Assembly: GCF_002886045.1 (NCBI RefSeq)
Contig: NZ_CP025791.1
Location: 3,363,001-3,427,000, forward strand
Origin: Flavivirga eckloniae
GTDB taxonomy: Bacteria; Bacteroidota; Bacteroidia; Flavobacteriales; Flavobacteriaceae
Length of the DNA: 64,000 bases
Direction: 5' to 3'
Positions 52,991 through 62,408 of this stretch are shown here, one piece after another. Position numbers and translations under genes: made by a program. Within the stretch, counting starts at the first letter, position 1; every line of letters starts with the position of its first letter. The notes beneath the pieces were generated by a model, which was not told where the DNA came from, did no database searches, and worked only from the letters and a program-made list of their open reading frames with translations.

Positions 52991-54598
52991 ATGAGATTAA
53001 AGAATGAAGTAAATGGAGTTTCATTGCATGTAATAGCTGGAACCCATGTTGTACTACTATGTTTAGATGTAAACGAAACGGCAAGAAAAGAGTTGTTGGG
53101 CTTTACGTTTGTACGCAAAAACACCGCAACTGGAGAAGTAAAACCCCTTAAAGGTTTTAAACAATTTAAAGAAAATGCGAGTAAAAGCGACACCGAATTA
53201 ATTCAAGCTTTTCTTTGGGGCGATTATACCGCAGAACCCAATACCAACTATGAGTATACAGCAACACCTGTTTACCGAACTCCCGAAAACAAAAAAAATG
53301 GTAGCGAAATTAAAATAGAAATTACAACTGAGAACCCAGATAAGGGTAAACATGGTGTCTTTTTTAACAGAGGAACAGTTGGGCAGGCATATGCTAGAAA
53401 ATTTAAGAATAAAAACCCCGATAAAGTTCCAAATAATGAAGCATATCATTGGCTTTCCAGAGGATTGGAGGAAGCCATGCTCGCATTTATAGCAGAAGCA
53501 AAGGGAAAAGATTATTCGTTACGTGTTGCTGCTTACGAGTTTGATTATGTACCGGTTATTCAAGCGTTGTATGATGCTTCAAAAAGAGGGGCAGATGTTA
53601 AAATTGTATACGACCATTCAAAAGCGGGCCCTTGGGAAAGTACAAATAAGGCTATAGCTAATGTTCCAGGAGTTGAAAAGTTAATGATTCCCAGAAAATC
53701 GAACTCATCCATAAAACATAATAAATACATCGTACTACTCCATAAAGGAAAACCGAAAGAAGTATGGATGGGATCTACCAATTTTACTAGAGGAGGCATT
53801 TTTGGGCAATCCAATGTAGGGCATATAGTAAGAGACGAAGCTATAGCAGAAGCTTATTTGGAATATTGGACACGACTTTCCAAAGATCCTGACTTGAAAG
53901 AAATTCGCCCATTAAATGAAAGTCATACACCAACTCCTAACGGAAGTTTACCAAAAGGAATCACTCCTATTTTTAGCCCAAGACCAGATTTAAGCGTTCT
54001 GGATTGGTACGGAAAACAAATAGAAGATGCAAAAGAATCTATTGGATTTACAGCAGCTTTTGGAGTGAATCAAGACTTCGCCGATATAATGAGTAAAGAA
54101 GACGAATCGCTTCGTTACATTTTATTAGAGCATGAAGGAAAAACATTCAACGATTTTAAAGATACACCTAACAATAGAATTGCTTTAGGGGCTATACTTA
54201 ATGATCAGGAAATAAAAGAAGAAGGTTTAAAAAATTGGGAGGCCGAGCATCTTACAGGCTTAAACGACCATGTTAAATATTTACATACAAAATACCTTTT
54301 TGTAGATCCGTTAACAGACGATCCAATACTCATCACAGGATCGGCTAACTTTTCCAAAGCATCTACGCAAAGCAATGATGAGAATATGATTATCGTTCGT
54401 GGCGATACTAACGTCGTGGATGTTTATCTCACAGAATTTGTCCGTCTTTTTAATCATTATGAATTTCGCGATCAATTAGCCAATAATGGTTTAGATGAGG
54501 TTTATTTCAGTGATTATCTAGCAACAGATAATTCCTGGACCAACATCTATTTCAAAAAAGGAACACAGCATTATAGAGAGCGAGAACTCTTCAGTTAA
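52991..54598 (+). CDS. Phospholipase D-like protein with one degenerate HKD motif
   Basis: A 535-residue cytoplasmic-looking protein (no signal peptide). An N-terminal beta domain (about 1-110) precedes two PLD repeats. The first has H243-x-K245 but Leu at 250, where the HxKx4D motif expects Asp, followed by VWMGSTNFTRGG. The second is complete (H432, K434, D439, then ITGSANFSKAS). PLD enzymes act on phosphodiesters such as phospholipids or nucleic acid. The degenerate first motif leaves activity uncertain. It heads the cluster running to about 60.1 kb; the next gene is 48 nt downstream. Substrate unknown. Confidence 0.87.
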   Translation: MRLKNEVNGVSLHVIAGTHVVLLCLDVNETARKELLGFTFVRKNTATGEVKPLKGFKQFKENASKSDTELIQAFLWGDYTAEPNTNYEYTATPVYRTPENKKNGSEIKIEITTENPDKGKHGVFFNRGTVGQAYARKFKNKNPDKVPNNEAYHWLSRGLEEAMLAFIAEAKGKDYSLRVAAYEFDYVPVIQALYDASKRGADVKIVYDHSKAGPWESTNKAIANVPGVEKLMIPRKSNSSIKHNKYIVLLHKGKPKEVWMGSTNFTRGGIFGQSNVGHIVRDEAIAEAYLEYWTRLSKDPDLKEIRPLNESHTPTPNGSLPKGITPIFSPRPDLSVLDWYGKQIEDAKESIGFTAAFGVNQDFADIMSKEDESLRYILLEHEGKTFNDFKDTPNNRIALGAILNDQEIKEEGLKNWEAEHLTGLNDHVKYLHTKYLFVDPLTDDPILITGSANFSKASTQSNDENMIIVRGDTNVVDVYLTEFVRLFNHYEFRDQLANNGLDEVYFSDYLATDNSWTNIYFKKGTQHYRERELFS

Positions 54599-54646
54599 TA
54601 ATAGCTTTCAAATAAACACATATTAAACCTTATAAAAACGCACCTT

Positions 54647-55204
54647 ATGAATGAAGAACTCACTTCTATTGGAGGTCCAGTATGTAATGAAAAACTCCCG
54701 GCTAGTTTAATCTTTGCAGAAGGGCAACACCTTACACATCAAAATAAAGAGGCCTTATGGGATATTTTTGAAGCCATAGGTAAAAACTGGTCTAACACTA
54801 TTTACGATTCTAATAATCAACGAAGTTCTTGGTATGAAATGCTAAAAGCAAAAACCGAAAACGCACCTAACTATGCAGGCGAATATGTAAATGCCATTTA
54901 TGTTTTAAATGAGTTATATAGTATGTATGGTAAGGACGAAGCCTTTAAAAAACTGTTTTTTGAAAGTGGTGTAGATAATAGCGCACCACCAACAACACGA
55001 TTAGCGCATTGCAAAATTTACGTGGTTAACGAATTTATTAGAATGCAAATTACCGCTGGCGGATTTAAGAGTTGGGGTACAAAATACGGAGGCGAGCAAG
55101 CAAGGAATTATCACGGATTCTTGGGAGGAACACGTTACAACCGCATTCCAAGAGTGCGTGAGTATGATCCAGAGACTACTAATTCAAAAAACGATGACGC
55201 ATGA
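54647..55204 (+). CDS. Unknown protein co-translated with a GMC oxidoreductase
   Basis: I do not recognise this 185-residue protein. It has no signal peptide or membrane segment and is probably mostly helical (ALWDIFEAIGKNW, YVNAIYVLNELYSMYGKDE, LAHCKIYVVNEFIRMQITAG). The C-terminal third is rich in Gly/Tyr/Arg (YGGEQARNYHGFLGGTRYN). Two Cys residues are present (VCNEK, AHCKI). Its stop overlaps the GMC start (ATGA at 55201-55204), so it is likely a partner or small subunit of that oxidoreductase. That relation is inferred only from gene order. Confidence 0.75.
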   Translation: MNEELTSIGGPVCNEKLPASLIFAEGQHLTHQNKEALWDIFEAIGKNWSNTIYDSNNQRSSWYEMLKAKTENAPNYAGEYVNAIYVLNELYSMYGKDEAFKKLFFESGVDNSAPPTTRLAHCKIYVVNEFIRMQITAGGFKSWGTKYGGEQARNYHGFLGGTRYNRIPRVREYDPETTNSKNDDA

Positions 55205-56841
55205 AAAACCAATATGATTATGTAATAGTTGGAGCTGGAGTTGCCGCTGCCACTATTGCAAAAGGATTACTAGAACATAAACACGATACGTCTATATTAA
55301 TTTTAGAAGCAGGACCAGAAATTATAGCAAAAGACAGGCGCTTTTGGTGGGACTATATTACACGTGGCGAAAGGCCGTATACGTTCACCTACGATCAAAA
55401 ATTTGAAGCAGATTCTACAGGGAATATCGAATATCAAACCGATGGTGTTCGCGTAAAAGCCTATGGAGGATCTACCATGCACTGGGGTGCTTGGTGCTTA
55501 CGCTTCAGACCAGAAGATTTTAACCTTCATACCAATACAGGTGAAGGCGCCGATTGGCCTATTAACTACGAAGACTTAGAATCATACTATAACGACGCTG
55601 AAGCATTTTTATCTGTTTGTGGAGACGATAATGCAAATTGGATACCAAGATCGAAACCCTATCCCGTACCTCCTTTTGAATGGACCGCGGCAGATGGTGC
55701 CATGATAGAAGCATGGGAGCAACTAGATGTGGTTTATCAAGATGGCGATATAGATCCGGGGACAAAAACAAAAATAAAATCTGGAAAAATGCCAATTGCA
55801 CGTTACCGAAAGTGTATGACCACGGGAACTTGTAAATACTGTCCCATAGGAGGGCGTTTTAACGCACAATATGTATTAGACGATTTAAAAAACGATACCC
55901 GATTTATCAATTTTGAAGTTCGAGTAAATGCACCGGTACATAAAGTGAATGCTTCGAGCAAATCAAAAATAGAATCTGTAACATATACAGACAATTTAAA
56001 CGGAAAAAAACATACCGTATACGGAGATACCATAATCTTAGCTTCGGGAGCATATAATGTACCAAAACTGTTAAGAGCCTCAAAAAATGAATTTTGGCAA
56101 GATGGTATAGGCAACGACTATGATTTAGTAGGACGTTTTGTGGTATCGCACTCTATGCTCAATGTTGTTGGTAAAGCCAAATCAAATCCTAACGGATGGT
56201 TTCAGGAATATGACTTCCCTACCCTAATGTCTCATAGTTATAATACCAAAGAGCATCAAAAAAAGGGCAAGATTTTTATGTTTAAAAACCGTACCACTCC
56301 AAATGTCGATATCGCTCAATTAATGATAGAGGGAAAAACCAGAGAAGAAATAGATGAGATTGTTTACGGAGAAATGACCATTAATCTTCAAGCCTTTTTA
56401 GAAGAAAAAGGGAAATTTAGTAATAGACTAGAAGCAAAACCGGGAGTAGATCGTTTTGGTCTGCCTCTAACCACAGTGCACTTTAGTAGAACGGATGAGG
56501 AAATGAAAAATGCCAATGATCGCTTAAGATTATTGGAGCAGGTTATTGAAAAAATGGGCTTAGAAGTAACCTCCTCCCGTATCGACAAACCAGGAGGACA
56601 TCATACCACAGGAACGGCTCGTATGGGTACTAGTCCAGAGAATAGCGTAACCGATAAATTTATGAAGGTGCACGATACCGATAACTTGTATGTATGCTCA
56701 AATGCCGCTTTCCCAACTGGAAGTGCTGTAAACCCTACACTTACCCTCACGGCAATGGCTTTTAGGTTAGTAGAACATTTAAAAAAAACCAACCAAATTA
56801 AATCAAAAATAGAAGATGTTAACACAGTCGACACAATATAA
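55201..56841 (+). CDS. GMC-family FAD-dependent oxidoreductase
   Basis: A 546-residue flavoprotein. The FAD Rossmann motif is at the N-terminus (YVIVGAGVAAATIAKGLLEH, then ILILEAGPE). GMC signatures are YGGSTMHWGAW near 97 and the C-terminal block GGHHTTGTARMG (H467, H468) with NAAFPTGSAVNPTLTLTAMA. The substrate domain carries an unusual Cys cluster, C205, C211 and C214 (KCMTTGTCKYCPIGGRF). Members oxidise alcohols or sugars; the acceptor and substrate are unknown here. It overlaps the genes on both sides (4 nt and 26 nt), so it is translated in one block with them. Confidence 0.92.
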   Translation: MKNQYDYVIVGAGVAAATIAKGLLEHKHDTSILILEAGPEIIAKDRRFWWDYITRGERPYTFTYDQKFEADSTGNIEYQTDGVRVKAYGGSTMHWGAWCLRFRPEDFNLHTNTGEGADWPINYEDLESYYNDAEAFLSVCGDDNANWIPRSKPYPVPPFEWTAADGAMIEAWEQLDVVYQDGDIDPGTKTKIKSGKMPIARYRKCMTTGTCKYCPIGGRFNAQYVLDDLKNDTRFINFEVRVNAPVHKVNASSKSKIESVTYTDNLNGKKHTVYGDTIILASGAYNVPKLLRASKNEFWQDGIGNDYDLVGRFVVSHSMLNVVGKAKSNPNGWFQEYDFPTLMSHSYNTKEHQKKGKIFMFKNRTTPNVDIAQLMIEGKTREEIDEIVYGEMTINLQAFLEEKGKFSNRLEAKPGVDRFGLPLTTVHFSRTDEEMKNANDRLRLLEQVIEKMGLEVTSSRIDKPGGHHTTGTARMGTSPENSVTDKFMKVHDTDNLYVCSNAAFPTGSAVNPTLTLTAMAFRLVEHLKKTNQIKSKIEDVNTVDTI

Positions 56842-57952
56842 AAATGCCTTTCAAGAGAAAGCAACCAAACTAACTAATGTAAAAGAGTTAATCCATCATT
56901 CAAAATCTGTTGAAGATGTAAGAGAAGACAAATTACATGTATTAAAGGAATTATTAAACAGTGCTGTAGTATTAGAGTTCGCGACCATACCAATATATCT
57001 GCAAGCTATGTGGACTATTAAGGATAATGAGTGCGACGTTGCAAAATCAATCCGTAATATTTTTCAAGAAGAAATGCTACATATGGCCATGGTATGCAAC
57101 ATGATTGTGGGTATAGGAGGCGAGCCTAAAATATACGATCCTAAAAACGGATTAAAGTATCCTAGTGGGCTTCCGGGTGGTGTACATCCCGAGCTTTATC
57201 TGTACCTAGAAGGATTGAACGATTGTTCGCTTAGAAATTTCATGGAGATAGAGTTACCCGAAGAAATCGCAGAAATATACGACTACGAAACAAAAGAACC
57301 AGTAAGTATAGGTGGACTTTGCGATCAAGATGGAAATATAACCAACGTTAAGCATATCCAAAGTCATGAGCACAATACAACCATTGGAGAGTTATACGAC
57401 AGAATTAACGAATTGTTCCAAGAGTTGCAACCAAACATGGACGTAGAGCGTCAATTGGCGGGACCACTATCATGGTGGGTTATGGCAGATGCTACAAGTG
57501 TATCTAAAGCCATCGATATGATTAAGGAACAAGGAGAAGGTTCAGAAAATGTAACGCCTGCCAGTACAGGAATGGATAATCTAGCCCACTTTTATCGTTT
57601 TTGGGAAGTGTATTATAAAAAGAAGATTGTACAAGAGGGGGATAAATATTACTTCAAAGACCCTATGCCAAGACCAGAAACCTATAACATAGCAAGGGTG
57701 CCTAAAGGTGGCTATAAACAAGAAGAGGTTTCGCCAGAAGTGTGGCATTTAATAAACAGTTTCGATGAGGTTTATACAGACTTGGTGAAGTTTTTAGAAG
57801 ACGCTTGGGCGATAAATGGTAGAGGACAAGCAGCTTTGGTGAACGCGATCGAAGTTATGTTTAAGCTAGAAAAATTTGCTCTGCCACTTATGCAGATACC
57901 CATTCCGGACAAAGAAGGATTGCATTATGGGCCTTGTTTTAGAATGATTTAA
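56816..57952 (+). CDS. Ferritin-like protein of the VioB/iminophenylpyruvate-dimer-synthase type
   Basis: A 378-residue protein with a ferritin-like four-helix domain at the N-terminus. Likely carboxylate/His ligands are E54 (VVLEFATIPIYLQAMW), E85/E86 and H89 (FQEEMLHMAMVCNMI), and a later SHEHNTTIGELYDRI. The last resembles the GEFY motif of the ferritin-like domain found in VioB and related pigment-pathway enzymes. In VioB-type enzymes the domain belongs to oxidative dimerisation of imines. This protein has only that domain plus a C-terminal extension, so the reaction is open. The start at 56816 overlaps the GMC gene by 26 nt, and no other Met lies near. Confidence 0.82.
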   Translation: MLTQSTQYKNAFQEKATKLTNVKELIHHSKSVEDVREDKLHVLKELLNSAVVLEFATIPIYLQAMWTIKDNECDVAKSIRNIFQEEMLHMAMVCNMIVGIGGEPKIYDPKNGLKYPSGLPGGVHPELYLYLEGLNDCSLRNFMEIELPEEIAEIYDYETKEPVSIGGLCDQDGNITNVKHIQSHEHNTTIGELYDRINELFQELQPNMDVERQLAGPLSWWVMADATSVSKAIDMIKEQGEGSENVTPASTGMDNLAHFYRFWEVYYKKKIVQEGDKYYFKDPMPRPETYNIARVPKGGYKQEEVSPEVWHLINSFDEVYTDLVKFLEDAWAINGRGQAALVNAIEVMFKLEKFALPLMQIPIPDKEGLHYGPCFRMI

Positions 57953-58059
57953 TGCAATATATAACCAAATAAACACACATTAATAATATATCTGTAAGGC
58001 TCAATTTTCAGATAAAATTATAAATACAAATACACTTTTACATCTAAATACTAAAAACA

Positions 58060-58632
58060 ATGAAACAAAAATTAAATATTTTATTAGCTTTTTTATTATT
58101 AACCACCGTTAATTCTTTTGCTCAAGGCAAGGGAGATACCACAACTAAATATAGCATAGGGCAAAATGTTCCGGAATTAGGAGGCATTGTATTTTATTTA
58201 GACGCCACCGGAAAACATGGATTGGTATGCGCGCCACAAGATCAGAGTACCGGTAGTCAGTGGCATTACGGCGCTTTTACTAATACCAAATCTTATGATA
58301 GTATTGTTGGTACAGGAAAGGCCAATACATCAAAAATTATCGTAAGCCAAGGCGTTAAACCATATGCAGCTAAACTTTGTTACGATTTAGAGTTAAATGG
58401 TTTTTCAGATTGGTACTTGCCATCAAAAAAAGAACTGAGCTTAATGTTTTCAAATATTGGGCGAGGTGCTAAGTCTCCAAACACAAATATTGGTAATTTT
58501 GCTAGCGACTTCTATTGGAGCTCTACAGAGCTAGATCTAAACTTCGCTTGGGCTCAATATTTTCTTATAGGTAACATATTTACAGATCTTAAGAATCATG
58601 AATGCCGTGTTCGTGCTGTTCGTTCTTTCTAA
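58060..58632 (+). CDS. Exported DUF1566 (Lcl C-terminal-like) protein
   Basis: A 190-residue protein with a signal peptide (LTTVNSFAQ, about 1-22). The body has GIVFYLDATGKHGLVCAPQD, LNGFSDWYLPSKKELSLMF, FYWSSTELD and a closing CRVRAVRSF. These are the recurrent motifs of the DUF1566/Lcl C-terminal domain, a C-type-lectin-like fold. A role in surface adhesion or as a ligand-binding component is possible. It lies 107 nt after the ferritin-like gene and 22 nt before an SRPBCC gene, so it may begin a second transcription unit or continue the same one. Confidence 0.8.
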   Translation: MKQKLNILLAFLLLTTVNSFAQGKGDTTTKYSIGQNVPELGGIVFYLDATGKHGLVCAPQDQSTGSQWHYGAFTNTKSYDSIVGTGKANTSKIIVSQGVKPYAAKLCYDLELNGFSDWYLPSKKELSLMFSNIGRGAKSPNTNIGNFASDFYWSSTELDLNFAWAQYFLIGNIFTDLKNHECRVRAVRSF

Positions 58633-58654
58633 TTGAAAAGAATATTATAGCAAA

Positions 58655-59107
58655 ATGAATACTAAAGAATATAAAAATTGGCGGGTTGTTGTGGTATGCG
58701 AATTAAATGCTCCACCGGCCAAAGTATGGGATTTGGTTGGAGGTTTTTATAACATCAATCAATGGCATCCAGATATTATAATTTCCGAAGTTCCGGAAAA
58801 GCAAGCAGAAGAAAGAGACATTCGTAGAAAAATAACGTTTCCCAATCAAAAACCAACGTACGAGGAATTGGTTTTTATGGATAATGAAAACATGCATTAT
58901 AAGTACAAATGGAATAAAGGAGAATGGGGAGAAATTGTACAAAATTACCATGCACAAATTCAAGTAGTAGAAACAAAGTTAGATGCACGCTGTTTGGTAC
59001 AATGGTCTTCTACATTCTATTACTTTGAAGACGGGTTAACAGAGTTTTACCAGAATGGTTTTAAAAATCTAATAAAAATGTTTGGCGGAAAATTAATCAA
59101 TAATTAA
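58655..59107 (+). CDS. SRPBCC-family protein (polyketide cyclase/dehydrase-like)
   Basis: A 150-residue protein with the START/SRPBCC helix-grip fold. The opening VVVCELNAPPAKVWDLVGGF, followed by the strand NQWHPDIIISEV, and the terminal helix GFKNLIKMFGGKLINN are typical of the polyketide_cyc2-like group. Such proteins hold a small hydrophobic ligand in a cavity and can be enzymes or carriers. A related protein, with the same NAPPxKVW start and FGGxL end, lies at 61432. Neighbour spacing is 22 and 11 nt, implying one operon. Confidence 0.83.
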   Translation: MNTKEYKNWRVVVVCELNAPPAKVWDLVGGFYNINQWHPDIIISEVPEKQAEERDIRRKITFPNQKPTYEELVFMDNENMHYKYKWNKGEWGEIVQNYHAQIQVVETKLDARCLVQWSSTFYYFEDGLTEFYQNGFKNLIKMFGGKLINN

Positions 59108-59118
59108 ATCAATAAAAT

Positions 59119-59520
59119 ATGGGAAGTTTCGTAGAAATAAATGACACATTACAATTAACAGAAGAACAAGGGTTTCCTGTTCATATTTTCGACTTAGAAA
59201 AACATCAAAAAAACCCAGTTACTCTAAAAGATGTAGAGGGAAAGGTATTTGAGTTTAAAAATAAACCTAGCGCTCGATTATTTCAAATAGATCCGGTAAG
59301 GGTTTATTACGTACACAATGTAAACGGAAAATGGTTGTTTTGGGGGCGCGTATTAATTCAATCACAAAAAATAGAAAAACAATTAAATGATGACGGTACA
59401 TGGGATGGAGAATCCTGGAAAACATCAGGAACGTATACGATACTTAATGTTTACGATCCAGAATATCAGAAGACATTTACTTTAAATGAGGCACCAGACG
59501 ATAGGAATTATTATAAATAA
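59119..59520 (+). CDS. Small protein of unknown function in the PLD-GMC cluster
   Basis: I do not recognise this 133-residue protein. It has no signal peptide or membrane helix. It looks beta-rich, with FPVHIFDLEKH, VFEFKNKPSARLFQIDPVRV, YYVHNVNGKWLFWGRVLI and GTYTILNVYDPEYQKTF. The alternating strands and the Trp-rich centre suggest a small barrel or ligand-binding fold. It starts 11 nt after the SRPBCC gene and is followed after 65 nt by a lipoprotein, so it belongs to the same unit. Confidence 0.7.
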   Translation: MGSFVEINDTLQLTEEQGFPVHIFDLEKHQKNPVTLKDVEGKVFEFKNKPSARLFQIDPVRVYYVHNVNGKWLFWGRVLIQSQKIEKQLNDDGTWDGESWKTSGTYTILNVYDPEYQKTFTLNEAPDDRNYYK

Positions 59521-59585
59521 GTAGAAATAACCATATGGAAGACCTGGAGCTTTTCTGGGATTGTTCATATGTAAAACCAAAAAAT

Positions 59586-60107
59586 ATGAAGAAAACGTTT
59601 ATTTTACTTATCGGAATTTTGGTGTTCTCTTGTAACCAAGGTAAAAACGAAAAACCGAAAACGACCGCAACCGAGAGTACTGCTAAAATAACCAAAACAG
59701 AAGCTAATTTCGATTGGTTGTTAGGCAAATGGAAAAGGAGTAATGAGGAAGCTGGAAAAGAAACATTTGCAAGTTGGGATAAAAAAAGCAACACCGACTA
59801 CGTAGGGTTTAGTTATACAACGCAAAAAGGAGATACGGTATACGAACAAAACTTTAGACTTGTAAAATTGAACAACGATTGGAGTTTTACAATTGCATTA
59901 AAAGGAGAAACGACACCATCTTCATTTAAAATGATAAGTTATAACGAACGGGAGTTTACTTGCGAAAACAATGATTTAGATTATCCTAATAGAGAAGCAG
60001 ATTCTCCAAACAAAATAAAGTATTGGATAAATAACGATAATCTATATGCTACAATTTCGGGAGAAAAAATAGAACTGCAGTTTGAATACGTAAGCATAAA
60101 TGAATGA
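59586..60107 (+). CDS. DUF6265-like lipoprotein
   Basis: I take ATG 59586 as the start (173 aa), because it begins a good lipoprotein signal with the Cys at C16 (LVFSC). The in-frame ATG at 59535 would add a 17-residue polar leader before the signal. The mature region FDWLLGKWKRSNEEAGKETF ... FRLVKLNNDWSFTIAL ... FTCENNDLDYPNREADSPNK ... LYATISGEK resembles DUF6265, a small lipocalin-like domain of unknown function. It ends the cluster; two hairpins follow. Confidence 0.72.
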   Translation: MKKTFILLIGILVFSCNQGKNEKPKTTATESTAKITKTEANFDWLLGKWKRSNEEAGKETFASWDKKSNTDYVGFSYTTQKGDTVYEQNFRLVKLNNDWSFTIALKGETTPSSFKMISYNEREFTCENNDLDYPNREADSPNKIKYWINNDNLYATISGEKIELQFEYVSINE

Positions 60108-60485
60108 TGTAAAGGGGTATTTTTAAATGTATAAGCTTTCTTATTAAAATTATGCTTAGGTACCTGTAAGATAAAGCTAGTATTTGTTCTGGATACTGCG
60201 TTCGAAGGTAAATACTATTATTTATTATAGTTTTATTAATCAATTGTTCAAGTGTTTTAATTTAGAAATTACATTCTAAAAAAGGAACGAAACCCCGTCA
60301 ATTTACAGGCGGGGAATTTCGTCCTTTAGAGCTGTCTCCCAAGTTTATCGAGAGTACTTACTTATCTGCTCGTTCTTAAGACGGGAGTCCACATGATAAA
60401 AACGCCGTTTATCTCAATACCGATTATACATTGAGATTTTTATTGAGTTCACATTAGTATCAATTAGAATTATAAAATCACAAAA
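60108..60485. terminator. Intergenic region with two terminator-like hairpins
   Basis: No gene is seen. The first hairpin (60281-60328) pairs aaaggaacgaaaccccg with cggggaatttcgtccttt imperfectly. The second (60411-60442) has a perfect 8-bp stem, atctcaat/attgagat, followed by Ts. Together they plausibly end the 53-60 kb cluster and separate it from the TMEM175-like gene. Confidence 0.6.
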
Positions 60486-61061
60486 ATGACATCAGAAAGA
60501 CTAGAAGCTTTTAGCGATGGCGTTATAGCTATTATTATCACTATTATGGTTTTAGAATTAAAAGCGCCTAACGAATATACTGTAGAGGCTCTTTTTGAAA
60601 TATTGCCAACATTTATTAGTTATTTCATCAGCTTTTTATACGTAAGTGTTTATTGGCTTAGTCACCACCAATTATTTAAAGTCGCTAAAAAAATAAATAA
60701 TAAAATCTTGTGGGCAAATTTAAACTTATTGTTTTGGTTAGCTCTAATCCCGTTTACTACAGATTGGATGGGAGAAGGAGATCATCATACAGATATTATT
60801 CCCTTGGCTTCATATGGTTTTGTACTTGTTATGTGTCAGTTATCGTTAATACTTTTAAGAAGCTCCATTGTTAGATTTCACGGAAAAGCATCACTTGTAG
60901 GAATGCAATTAGGTAGAAAATATATAGATTTTTTTTGCATGGTTATTTATATAATAGGTTTATCCCTATCGGCTTTAAATGCATATATAGCCATGATATG
61001 TTTTTTATTGGTTGCTCTCCTTAAAGTAGTAGAGTTGGGCTATGTTCCGAAAAAGGCCTAG
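60486..61061 (+). CDS. TMEM175-family (DUF1211) potassium channel-like membrane protein
   Basis: A 191-residue membrane protein. The N-terminal helix carries the family signature RLEAFSDGVIAIIITIMVLEL (FSDG motif). About six transmembrane segments are predicted (15-33, 45-63, 77-95, 108-124, 150-168, 170-186). Bacterial TMEM175 proteins are tetrameric K+ channels with a hydrophobic filter made by the first helix. This copy has a single repeat of the bacterial type. It appears monocistronic; a palindromic repeat begins 8 nt after its stop. Confidence 0.87.
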   Translation: MTSERLEAFSDGVIAIIITIMVLELKAPNEYTVEALFEILPTFISYFISFLYVSVYWLSHHQLFKVAKKINNKILWANLNLLFWLALIPFTTDWMGEGDHHTDIIPLASYGFVLVMCQLSLILLRSSIVRFHGKASLVGMQLGRKYIDFFCMVIYIIGLSLSALNAYIAMICFLLVALLKVVELGYVPKKA

Positions 61062-61431: not shown

Positions 61432-62046
61432 ATGAAACAGTTATTAATTGTGCCAGCAATCTTAATAATGATTGGCTGCAACGGACAAAACAAAGCAAAG
61501 TTGAATAGTACAGCAGAACCAAAAATGATAGCAGTTTATCCAAGTGCCGATAAATTTGTAAAAACGCCATTAAGAAATAGTATTACACTAAAATTAAATG
61601 CTCCTCCTTCCAAAGTTTGGTCTCAAGTAGGAAGGCTGGAACGTATGCCAGAATACAGTTCTGGACTTGAAAAAGTAGACGCAGAGTACGATACTTCAAA
61701 TAAATGTACCAGCTTTACATGCCATTTTTTACCCATGGAAGAAAGGCAACAAGGACTAGACCATAGTGAAAAAGTAGTATGGTACGAGCCTAACATCGGT
61801 CTAGCATCGTTAGCACACGAACCCAATGCATTCGATTTACAACAATCTCTTGGATTAATAACATTAAAAGCTGAAGGAGATCACACTATATTTAAGTGGG
61901 CTATTCATTTTACCTCAAAAAACGATGAGGCAATAGCAATGAATATAGCAGCATTTAAACAAGCTTTAAACGACGATATAGCTCAAAATCTCATAAAAAT
62001 ATTCGGAGGTGAAGTTTTAGAAAATTTTAGTCAGGACATACAATAA
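61432..62046 (+). CDS. SRPBCC-family lipoprotein
   Basis: A 204-residue protein with a lipobox at C16 (MIGC) and an SRPBCC-type fold: ITLKLNAPPSKVWSQVGRLE, TSFTCHFLPMEERQQGL, GDHTIFKWAIHFTSK, ending NLIKIFGGEVLENF. It shares the start and end motifs with the cytoplasmic SRPBCC protein at 58655, which suggests paralogy. A TAGTTTTG box lies at 61398-61405. An ABM-type monooxygenase gene follows after 62 nt. Ligand unknown; secreted SRPBCC proteins are uncommon. Confidence 0.8.
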   Translation: MKQLLIVPAILIMIGCNGQNKAKLNSTAEPKMIAVYPSADKFVKTPLRNSITLKLNAPPSKVWSQVGRLERMPEYSSGLEKVDAEYDTSNKCTSFTCHFLPMEERQQGLDHSEKVVWYEPNIGLASLAHEPNAFDLQQSLGLITLKAEGDHTIFKWAIHFTSKNDEAIAMNIAAFKQALNDDIAQNLIKIFGGEVLENFSQDIQ

Positions 62047-62108
62047 TTGGCCAGTATTGGTGTTTTTACAATCAAAATAATATTGGGGCATAAATAATAC
62101 AAATTTAA

Positions 62109-62408
62109 ATGAAGATAATAATAGGGAAATGGCACGTAAAACATGAGTGCATTGATGATTTTATTACATTGAGCAAACAAGCAACCGATATATCTAGAAA
62201 AGAAGCTGGAAATATAAGTTTTACATTTTCTGAGATTAAAACAGATGTCAACATGTTTCTGTTTTTTGAGGAATGGAAAGGCCAACAAGCTATCGATTTT
62301 CACGTCTCTCAAGATTATTTCAAAGAATTTATGCTTAAATCGGAGCGTATGCTTCTTTCGAAACCAGCAATAACGATATATGATATAGAAAGCCAAACGA
62401 CGTTATAG
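62109..62408 (+). CDS. Antibiotic biosynthesis monooxygenase (ABM)-like protein
   Basis: A 99-residue ferredoxin-like-fold protein. The opening IIIGKWHVKHECIDDFITLS, the middle EAGNISFTFSEIK and FLFFEEWKGQQAIDFHVSQD (with the conserved EEW and H) are the ABM-domain pattern. Such proteins are cofactor-free monooxygenases, quinol or reactive-species handling proteins, or haem-related enzymes. The specific role is unknown. It probably forms a unit with the SRPBCC lipoprotein just upstream. Confidence 0.85.
   Translation: MKIIIGKWHVKHECIDDFITLSKQATDISRKEAGNISFTFSEIKTDVNMFLFFEEWKGQQAIDFHVSQDYFKEFMLKSERMLLSKPAITIYDIESQTTL

What the first reader, a model, noticed from the sequence alone, without database searches (positions are those of the whole stretch)
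52991..60107. Unfamiliar oxidative gene cluster: PLD-like, unknown, GMC oxidoreductase, VioB-type ferritin-like, DUF1566, SRPBCC, unknown, DUF6265-like
Eight same-strand genes with very short gaps, and overlaps of 4 and 26 nt around the GMC gene, point to a coordinated unit. A GMC flavoenzyme, a di-metal ferritin-like protein related to the imine-dimerising VioB domain and a ligand-binding SRPBCC protein suggest processing of a small molecule by oxidation and coupling. The PLD-like and two unrecognised proteins do not fit any pathway I know. No synthase (NRPS, PKS, terpene) lies within the window, so the substrate may be a host metabolite or nutrient.
Basis: partly seen in the sequence, partly recalled or inferred. 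Interest (0 to 1): 0.7.

Follow-up and report, generated by a model that had tools for sequence, protein, structure and literature searches.

The report
Mobile oxidase gene cluster, function unknown
Some marine bacteria share a travelling set of about nine genes built around a sugar-dehydrogenase-like flavin enzyme and a metal-binding ferritin-like partner; the set is real and moves as a block, but what it oxidises is unknown.

Summary
In detail: eight same-strand genes at 52991-60107, with a 4-nt overlap (185-aa/GMC) and a 26-nt overlap (GMC/ferritin-like). A ninth gene (TMEM175-type channel, 60486-61061) belongs to the conserved set. Fifteen relatives (titles: Flavivirga, Tenacibaculum, Kordia, Bizionia, Crocinitomix and others) share a core PLD, u185, GMC, ferritin-like, u133. 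Eleven of them add one of two mutually exclusive modules: Lcl_C + DUF6265-like (as in the window), or Dyp peroxidase + SRPBCC + cupin. The block moves horizontally: its tree conflicts with rpsA, and the site it occupies in five congeners is empty in this genome. The GMC is not VioA-like; it matches the Fe-S class of FAD sugar dehydrogenases, and u185 looks like its small subunit (a Tat-signalled homologue sits beside a GMC elsewhere). u185-GMC-PF12902 recurs on alphaproteobacterial plasmids; a second, distant GMC + PF12902 pair recurs on rhizobial plasmids. Best reading: a cytosolic two-subunit alcohol/sugar dehydrogenase coupled to a ferritin-like di-metal protein where classical enzymes use cytochrome c, inside a mobile small-molecule oxidation cluster. 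Substrate, electron path and PLD role are inferred. VioB-like coupling and anti-phage defence remain possible but less supported.

The parts
52991..54598 (+). PLD: 535-aa protein, about 130-aa N-terminal part plus two PLD-like domains; second motif HTKYLFVD...GSANFS complete, first HNK...GSTNF lacks the Asp
   Evidence: in 14 of 14 readable relatives
54647..55204 (+). u185: helical small subunit of the GMC dehydrogenase (inferred); conserved C-terminal GGFKSWG..NYHGF motif; no Tat-like signal
   Evidence: (low-confidence model); homologue with Tat-like start beside a GMC in L047
55201..56841 (+). GMC: FAD dehydrogenase catalytic subunit (H94, C205, H468, N511)
   Evidence: PF05199 5.7e-20; 6a2u_B 1e-45; the four residues identical in 22 of 22 aligned GMCs; starts inside the u185 stop (ATGA)
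55813..55845 (+). Cys cluster C-x5-C-x2-CP of the GMC, candidate Fe-S site
   Evidence: same spacing in 19 of 19 u185-linked GMCs; C-x5-C-x3-C in L049, L063 and L064
56816..57952 (+). FER: PF12902 ferritin-like protein, candidate di-metal site E54, E86, H89, E146 (also E241, H258)
   Evidence: PF12902 7.8e-46; residues identical in 17 of 17 aligned relatives
58060..58632 (+). LCL: probably secreted protein with Lcl_C domain; accessory module A
   Evidence: 6 of 15 relatives
58655..59107 (+). SRP: SRPBCC/polyketide-cyclase-like protein
   Evidence: an SRPBCC gene in 13 of 15 relatives
59119..59520 (+). u133: 133-aa protein specific to this cluster
   Evidence: 15 of 15 relatives; 4 of 397 family genomes, the four with a full-scoring u185
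59586..60107 (+). D6265: lipoprotein-like protein with weak DUF6265 match (ORF open from 59535); accessory module A
   Evidence: the same 6 of 15 relatives as LCL
60281..60327 (+). strong hairpin, possible end of the transcript (no U tract)
60486..61061 (+). TMEM175-family channel, conserved member of the set
   Evidence: PF06736 3e-31; 14 of 15 relatives

Best explanation
A horizontally moving accessory gene cluster for oxidising a small molecule in the cytosol. u185 and GMC form a two-subunit FAD dehydrogenase of the glucose/fructose dehydrogenase class, with a cysteine-ligated iron-sulfur site, that oxidises an alcohol or sugar. The ferritin-like di-metal protein, made from a frame overlapping the GMC gene, works with it, most likely taking its electrons and passing them to oxygen in the place that cytochrome c holds in the classical enzymes. 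PLD would release or trim a phosphodiester substrate; SRPBCC, u133 and the swappable accessory modules would bind, finish or export the product. Shown by sequence: conserved linkage, families, motifs, mobility and module swap. Inferred: complex formation, Fe-S and di-metal loading, electron path, substrate, and the roles of PLD and the accessory genes.
For: Core order kept in 13 of 13 readable relatives. Best solved relatives of GMC are GDH and FDH large subunits; FAD-linking His, catalytic His and Asn, and first Cys align in 22 of 22 GMCs (roles from passages of PMC6719666). u185 homologue with a Tat-like start directly upstream of a GMC in L047; in Pantoea L063 the order is small subunit, GMC, cytochrome c, with cytochrome c where FER stands here. 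u185-GMC-FER repeated with tight spacing on four alphaproteobacterial plasmids (FER broken in one). A separate GMC + FER + 162-aa unit on rhizobial plasmids: 125 records match, 88 over at least 80% of it. Small subunits of FER-linked loci lack a Tat-like start (17 of 17 rows read); 4 of 5 FER-free loci have one. Candidate metal ligands 17 of 17. Purifying selection.
Against: No substrate or product evidence. u185 does not match PF13618 or PF12318 by profile, and fold searches with its low-confidence model gave nothing. Cys spacing is C-x5-C-x2-C, not C-x5-C-x3-C. L040 has a Tat-less u + GMC without FER. L026 and L038 have both FER and an apparently exported CxxCH protein upstream, so FER need not replace a cytochrome. 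Of 9 FER neighbourhoods taken from the plasmid FER hit list, only 1 (L049) had a GMC next to it; the other GMC-linked ones were found through u185. None of 6 PLD neighbourhoods inspected (of 111 records) has FER.
Confidence: 0.4

Rival explanations
1. VioA/VioB-like tailoring: the GMC makes a reactive carbonyl or imine and FER couples or rearranges it, so the cluster is a small natural-product pathway acting on a host metabolite.
For: PF12902 domain (its sharing with VioB is recalled). Oxidase/flavoprotein genes with a PF12902 neighbour recur: GMC; PF12902 genes near lodA/lodB-like genes in fungi (PMC4417212 passages); a LodA_N gene beside a PF12902 protein in L031. Dyp, cupin and SRPBCC in module B suit tailoring.
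Against: GMC is dehydrogenase-like, not an amino-acid oxidase; no VioB-like N-terminal part; no scaffold-building enzyme among the cluster families.
Confidence: 0.25
2. Anti-phage or other conflict system: PLD acts as nuclease and the oxidoreductases sense infection or make a toxic oxidant.
For: PLD matches DrmC (PADLOC 1.5e-11), ZacB (6.2e-8) and DpdK (5.6e-5) models. Plasmid triads lie near SIR2, TIR, VapC, AAA + S8 peptidase genes. Patchy distribution (6 of 12 genus genomes incl. own) and mobility.
Against: None of the other eight cluster proteins matches PADLOC at E 0.01, nor do the four largest other genes found at the pyrR/rpsA site in three congeners. PLD has no match in the phages collection, u133 none in viral contigs. 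Most cluster proteins are of small-molecule type.
Confidence: 0.12
3. Oxidative-stress or H2O2-handling cluster: GMC makes or removes oxidants, with FER/Dyp as peroxidase or O2 sink, protecting the cell; no dedicated product.
For: Dyp peroxidase in module B; ferritin-like domain; channel gene.
Against: Module B is only in 5 of 15; PLD, SRPBCC, u133 and Lcl_C do not fit a stress set; no encapsulin in 10 of 10 cluster genomes searched.
Confidence: 0.13
4. Loose neighbours: genes that share a mobile spot without joint function.
For: Accessory genes come and go; PLD homologues occur without the other core genes on plasmids.
Against: Core order 13 of 13 in differing flanks, overlapping frames, u133 limited to cluster genomes, u185-GMC-FER also in another phylum.
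Confidence: 0.04

Closest known systems
Direct-electron-transfer FAD dehydrogenase complexes (Burkholderia cepacia GDH, fructose dehydrogenase)
   Same: GMC catalytic subunit with three Cys and His/Asn pair; small protein encoded just upstream
   Different: Small protein is another sequence family without Tat-like signal; Cys spacing differs; no cytochrome c gene in the cluster; PF12902 protein instead
VioB / RebD / StaD (violacein, indolocarbazole enzymes; recalled)
   Same: PF12902 ferritin-like domain next to a flavoenzyme gene
   Different: No long N-terminal part; flavoenzyme is a GMC dehydrogenase, not an amino-acid oxidase; no indole pathway genes in the cluster
LodA/LodB-like genes with a PF12902 neighbour (fungal loci, PMC4417212, passages)
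   Same: PF12902 protein accompanying an oxidase and a flavoprotein
   Different: No LodA or LodB in the cluster
Rhizobial GMC + PF12902 + 162-aa unit near an iolE gene (L049)
   Same: GMC, PF12902 and a small protein in one tight unit
   Different: GMC only about 25% identical to the window's; a different small protein; apparently independent assembly

Membership tests
DET-type FAD dehydrogenase complex | GMC catalytic subunit of the GDH/FDH class | tested here: met
   phmmer 6a2u_B 1e-45 over residues 5-529; FDH 1.6e-41
DET-type FAD dehydrogenase complex | His/Asn catalytic pair and FAD-linking His | tested here: met
   H468, N511 and H94 columns identical in 22 of 22 GMCs incl. L063; roles from PMC6719666 passages
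DET-type FAD dehydrogenase complex | 3Fe-4S site from three Cys (C-x5-C-x3-C) | tested here: inconclusive
   three Cys present, spacing C-x5-C-x2-C; the metal cluster itself is not testable here
DET-type FAD dehydrogenase complex | small subunit of PF12318 or PF13618 | tested here: not met
   no Pfam match for u185 or its homologues to these families; hhalign of 19 u185-type rows against 22 PF13618/PF12318 proteins E 0.26; only a weak C-terminal resemblance to L064 (E 0.0047, probability 7.4)
DET-type FAD dehydrogenase complex | Tat-exported small subunit | tested here: not met
   no RR-plus-hydrophobic start, by eye, in 17 of 17 rows; homologue L047 has one (PF10518 E 0.0099, below cut-off)
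DET-type FAD dehydrogenase complex | multihaem cytochrome c subunit | tested here: not met
   none among the nine cluster genes
VioB/RebD/StaD | PF12902 domain | tested here: met
   7.8e-46
VioB/RebD/StaD | long N-terminal part before PF12902 (recalled for VioB) | tested here: not met
   only 46 residues precede the domain
VioB/RebD/StaD | amino-acid oxidase partner gene | tested here: not met
   partner is a GMC dehydrogenase
VioB/RebD/StaD | imine-dimer product | not testable with these tools
   needs biochemistry
Known anti-phage defence system | set of PADLOC system proteins | tested here: not met
   of nine cluster proteins only PLD gives matches, best DrmC 1.5e-11 over part of the protein
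Encapsulin cargo system | encapsulin shell gene in the genome | tested here: not met
   PF04454 in 0 of 10 cluster genomes; controls rang in 3 of 14

The most novel reading that the evidence does not exclude
A ferritin-like di-metal protein has repeatedly replaced cytochrome c as the electron acceptor of Fe-S GMC dehydrogenases, turning a periplasmic respiratory enzyme into a soluble, oxygen-reducing cytosolic machine that travels between marine bacteria as a core with interchangeable finishing modules.
Probability: 0.25. Interest if true: 0.7.

Novelty: new variant of a known kind. Interest (0 to 1): 0.5.

Why it matters
PF12902 proteins outside the violacein/indolocarbazole enzymes mostly have no assigned function (recalled). 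Finding them tied at least twice, apparently independently, to GMC dehydrogenases with a cysteine cluster gives a direct, testable hypothesis for what they do (electron acceptor or partner oxidase), and the module swap (Lcl_C + DUF6265-like against Dyp + SRPBCC + cupin) offers a natural experiment for the pathway's end steps.
Full report
What is there. The window is G000:C1:3363001-3427000 of a complete 5.67-Mb genome. Its rpsA is 98% identical to that of Flavivirga sp. 57AJ16 (L013). The D6265 lipoprotein-like gene probably starts at 59586. A TMEM175-type channel gene (60486-61061) follows after a strong hairpin.

Conservation. A scan of genome contigs with FER gave 15 loci (names are record titles). 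In these: GMC in 14 of 14 readable (L014 starts too late; L023 holds a part), u185 in 13 of 13 (L014 and L023 cut), PLD in 14 of 14 (upstream in 13, downstream in L023), u133 in 15 of 15 (twice in L023), TMEM175 in 14 of 15 (not in L023, whose contig is short), an SRPBCC gene in 13 of 15 (not in L010, L011). LCL and D6265 occur together in six (L013, L015, L019, L020, L021, L022; D6265 lies upstream of PLD in L020 and L022). A Dyp peroxidase, a more distant SRPBCC (49-51% identity to the window's) and a cupin occur together in five (L014, L016, L017, L018, L024; families). No locus has both sets; L010, L011, L012 and L023 have neither. Presence of FER is fixed by the search, and the scan reaches close relatives only, so these counts describe this subfamily.

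Rarity and specificity. A u185 profile matched 5 of 397 genomes of the family including the window's; u133 matched 4 of 397 (the same handles are listed), namely those with a full-scoring u185. The fifth, G629 (L047), has a distant u185 homologue with a Tat-like start directly upstream of a GMC and no FER in 19.5 kb. In the genus, 6 of 12 genomes including the own have FER.

Mobility. In five congeneric loci (L010-L013, L015) the block lies beside pyrR, with rpsA on its other side in four (the L015 contig ends first). In the window genome pyrR and rpsA are 120 bp apart, an empty site, and the cluster is about 3 Mb away. Three other congeners have 140-147 bp there; three have 1.1-3.9 kb of other genes, four of which give no PADLOC match. 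A five-protein cluster tree (14 rows; L014 and L023 dropped as truncated) puts T. ovolyticum with Kordia (support 100) and separates the two Bizionia records, whereas rpsA unites the four Tenacibaculum (100) and the two Bizionia (99) (quick method, SH-aLRT only). GMC identity to the window is 87-89% in Tenacibaculum, while rpsA of Flavivirga L013 is 75-78% identical to theirs. pN/pS is 0.056-0.30 against two relatives, with synonymous sites near saturation.

The dehydrogenase. GMC best matches are glucose dehydrogenase and fructose dehydrogenase large subunits. Passages of PMC6719666 describe that class: 3Fe-4S on Cys212, Cys218 and Cys222, a His/Asn pair, covalent FAD-His105, a secreted hitchhiker small subunit, a multihaem cytochrome c subunit. 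The matching His, Cys, His and Asn columns are identical in 22 of 22 aligned GMCs. The three Cys are spaced C-x5-C-x2-C in 19 of 19 u185-linked GMCs and C-x5-C-x3-C in L049, L063 and L064. u185 homologues from Bacteroidota and Alphaproteobacteria share W48, P74, Y76, Y80, E129, N154 (window numbering) and a glycine-rich tail. They are not PF13618 or PF12318 by profile. Small subunits of FER-linked loci lack a Tat-like start in 17 of 17 rows read (L017 not read; L026 has RR but no hydrophobic stretch; FER is broken in L039), while L047, L063, L064 and L065, without FER, have one; L040 lacks both. This rests on reading by eye and few independent cases.

The ferritin-like protein. E54, E86, H89, E146, E241 and H258 are identical in 17 of 17 aligned PF12902 proteins, enough for a di-metal site; the Glu of the TIGE motif is not conserved. 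Plasmid neighbourhoods: of 9 taken from the FER hit list, 1 (L049; GMC about 25% identical to the window's) has a GMC beside it and 8 (L027-L031, L050-L052) show none in the incomplete PLSDB tables. Four more, found through u185, all have GMC: L025, L026, L038, and L039 with a broken FER. The L049 unit matches 125 rhizobial plasmid records, 88 over at least 80% of it. In L026 and L038 an apparently exported protein with a CxxCH motif precedes the triad, so a cytochrome may coexist with FER.

PLD. The second HKD motif is intact and the first lacks its Asp in 14 of 14 cluster PLDs. A different PLD (22% identity) follows the triad in Methylorubrum, and another (38%) lies after u133 in L023: PLDs join this gene set in different positions, which suggests a working link. 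But of 111 plasmid records with a PLD match, none of the 6 neighbourhoods inspected has FER; one (L036) has a GMC gene 4.5 kb away.

How it most likely works. u185-GMC oxidises an alcohol or sugar in the cytosol; FER takes the electrons or acts on the product with oxygen; PLD and the accessory proteins prepare and finish the compound. Confidence 0.4 for the dehydrogenase-FER partnership within a small-molecule cluster. Shown: linkage, families, motifs, mobility. Inferred: complex, cofactors, electron path, substrate, PLD role.

Verdict. The finding is real and the unit is a conserved block; its reading as a VioB-type oxidative coupling cluster is not specially supported. It is a new variant built from known parts, moderately interesting because the GMC-PF12902 partnership recurs and can be tested directly.

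Noticed in passing
L040 7268-11045 (G065): u185-like + GMC pair flanked by a 403-aa protein with a sub-cut-off ADPrib_exo_Tox match (E 0.015) and a PA-IIL lectin (3.2e-10); a different setting for the same enzyme pair.
   Followed up: partly
L029 5116-8176; L041 8039-11003; L050 2875-5957; L051 2921-6035; L052 2820-6101: PF12902 proteins preceded by a 587-675-aa protein, in L029 and L050 with ebo-annotated genes; by recall the upstream protein in L029 and L041 resembles the VioB N-terminal half, suggesting a split VioB (not tested).
   Followed up: no
L031 1-7966; L027 1-8002: PF12902 proteins with a long N-terminal part (BNR repeats found in L027) next to radical SAM, halogenase/monooxygenase and, in L031, LodA_N genes: possible quinoprotein system with a ferritin-like partner.
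   Followed up: partly
L010 11913-12495: The TMEM175 gene is split over two frames in this isolate.
   Followed up: no
L039 6599-7959 and 10035-11086: FER and the gene upstream of the triad are in pieces in Rhizobium johnstonii TP60.
   Followed up: no
G000:C1:3728404-3728830: A PF13618 gene appears in two adjacent pieces, probably a pseudogene.
   Followed up: no
L048 1270-4378 (same contig as L022): A 744-aa protein with an NAD_binding_8 domain and a 286-aa unknown protein, both on the minus strand, lie near the cluster in Bizionia 1139.
   Followed up: partly
window 61432-62408: A second SRPBCC, lipoprotein-like gene and an ABM monooxygenase-like gene follow the cluster in the window; neither matched any of the 15 relatives at E 1e-4.
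   Followed up: partly
L021 300-3403: Lantibiotic dehydratase N and C parts lie upstream of the cluster in T. ovolyticum.
   Followed up: no
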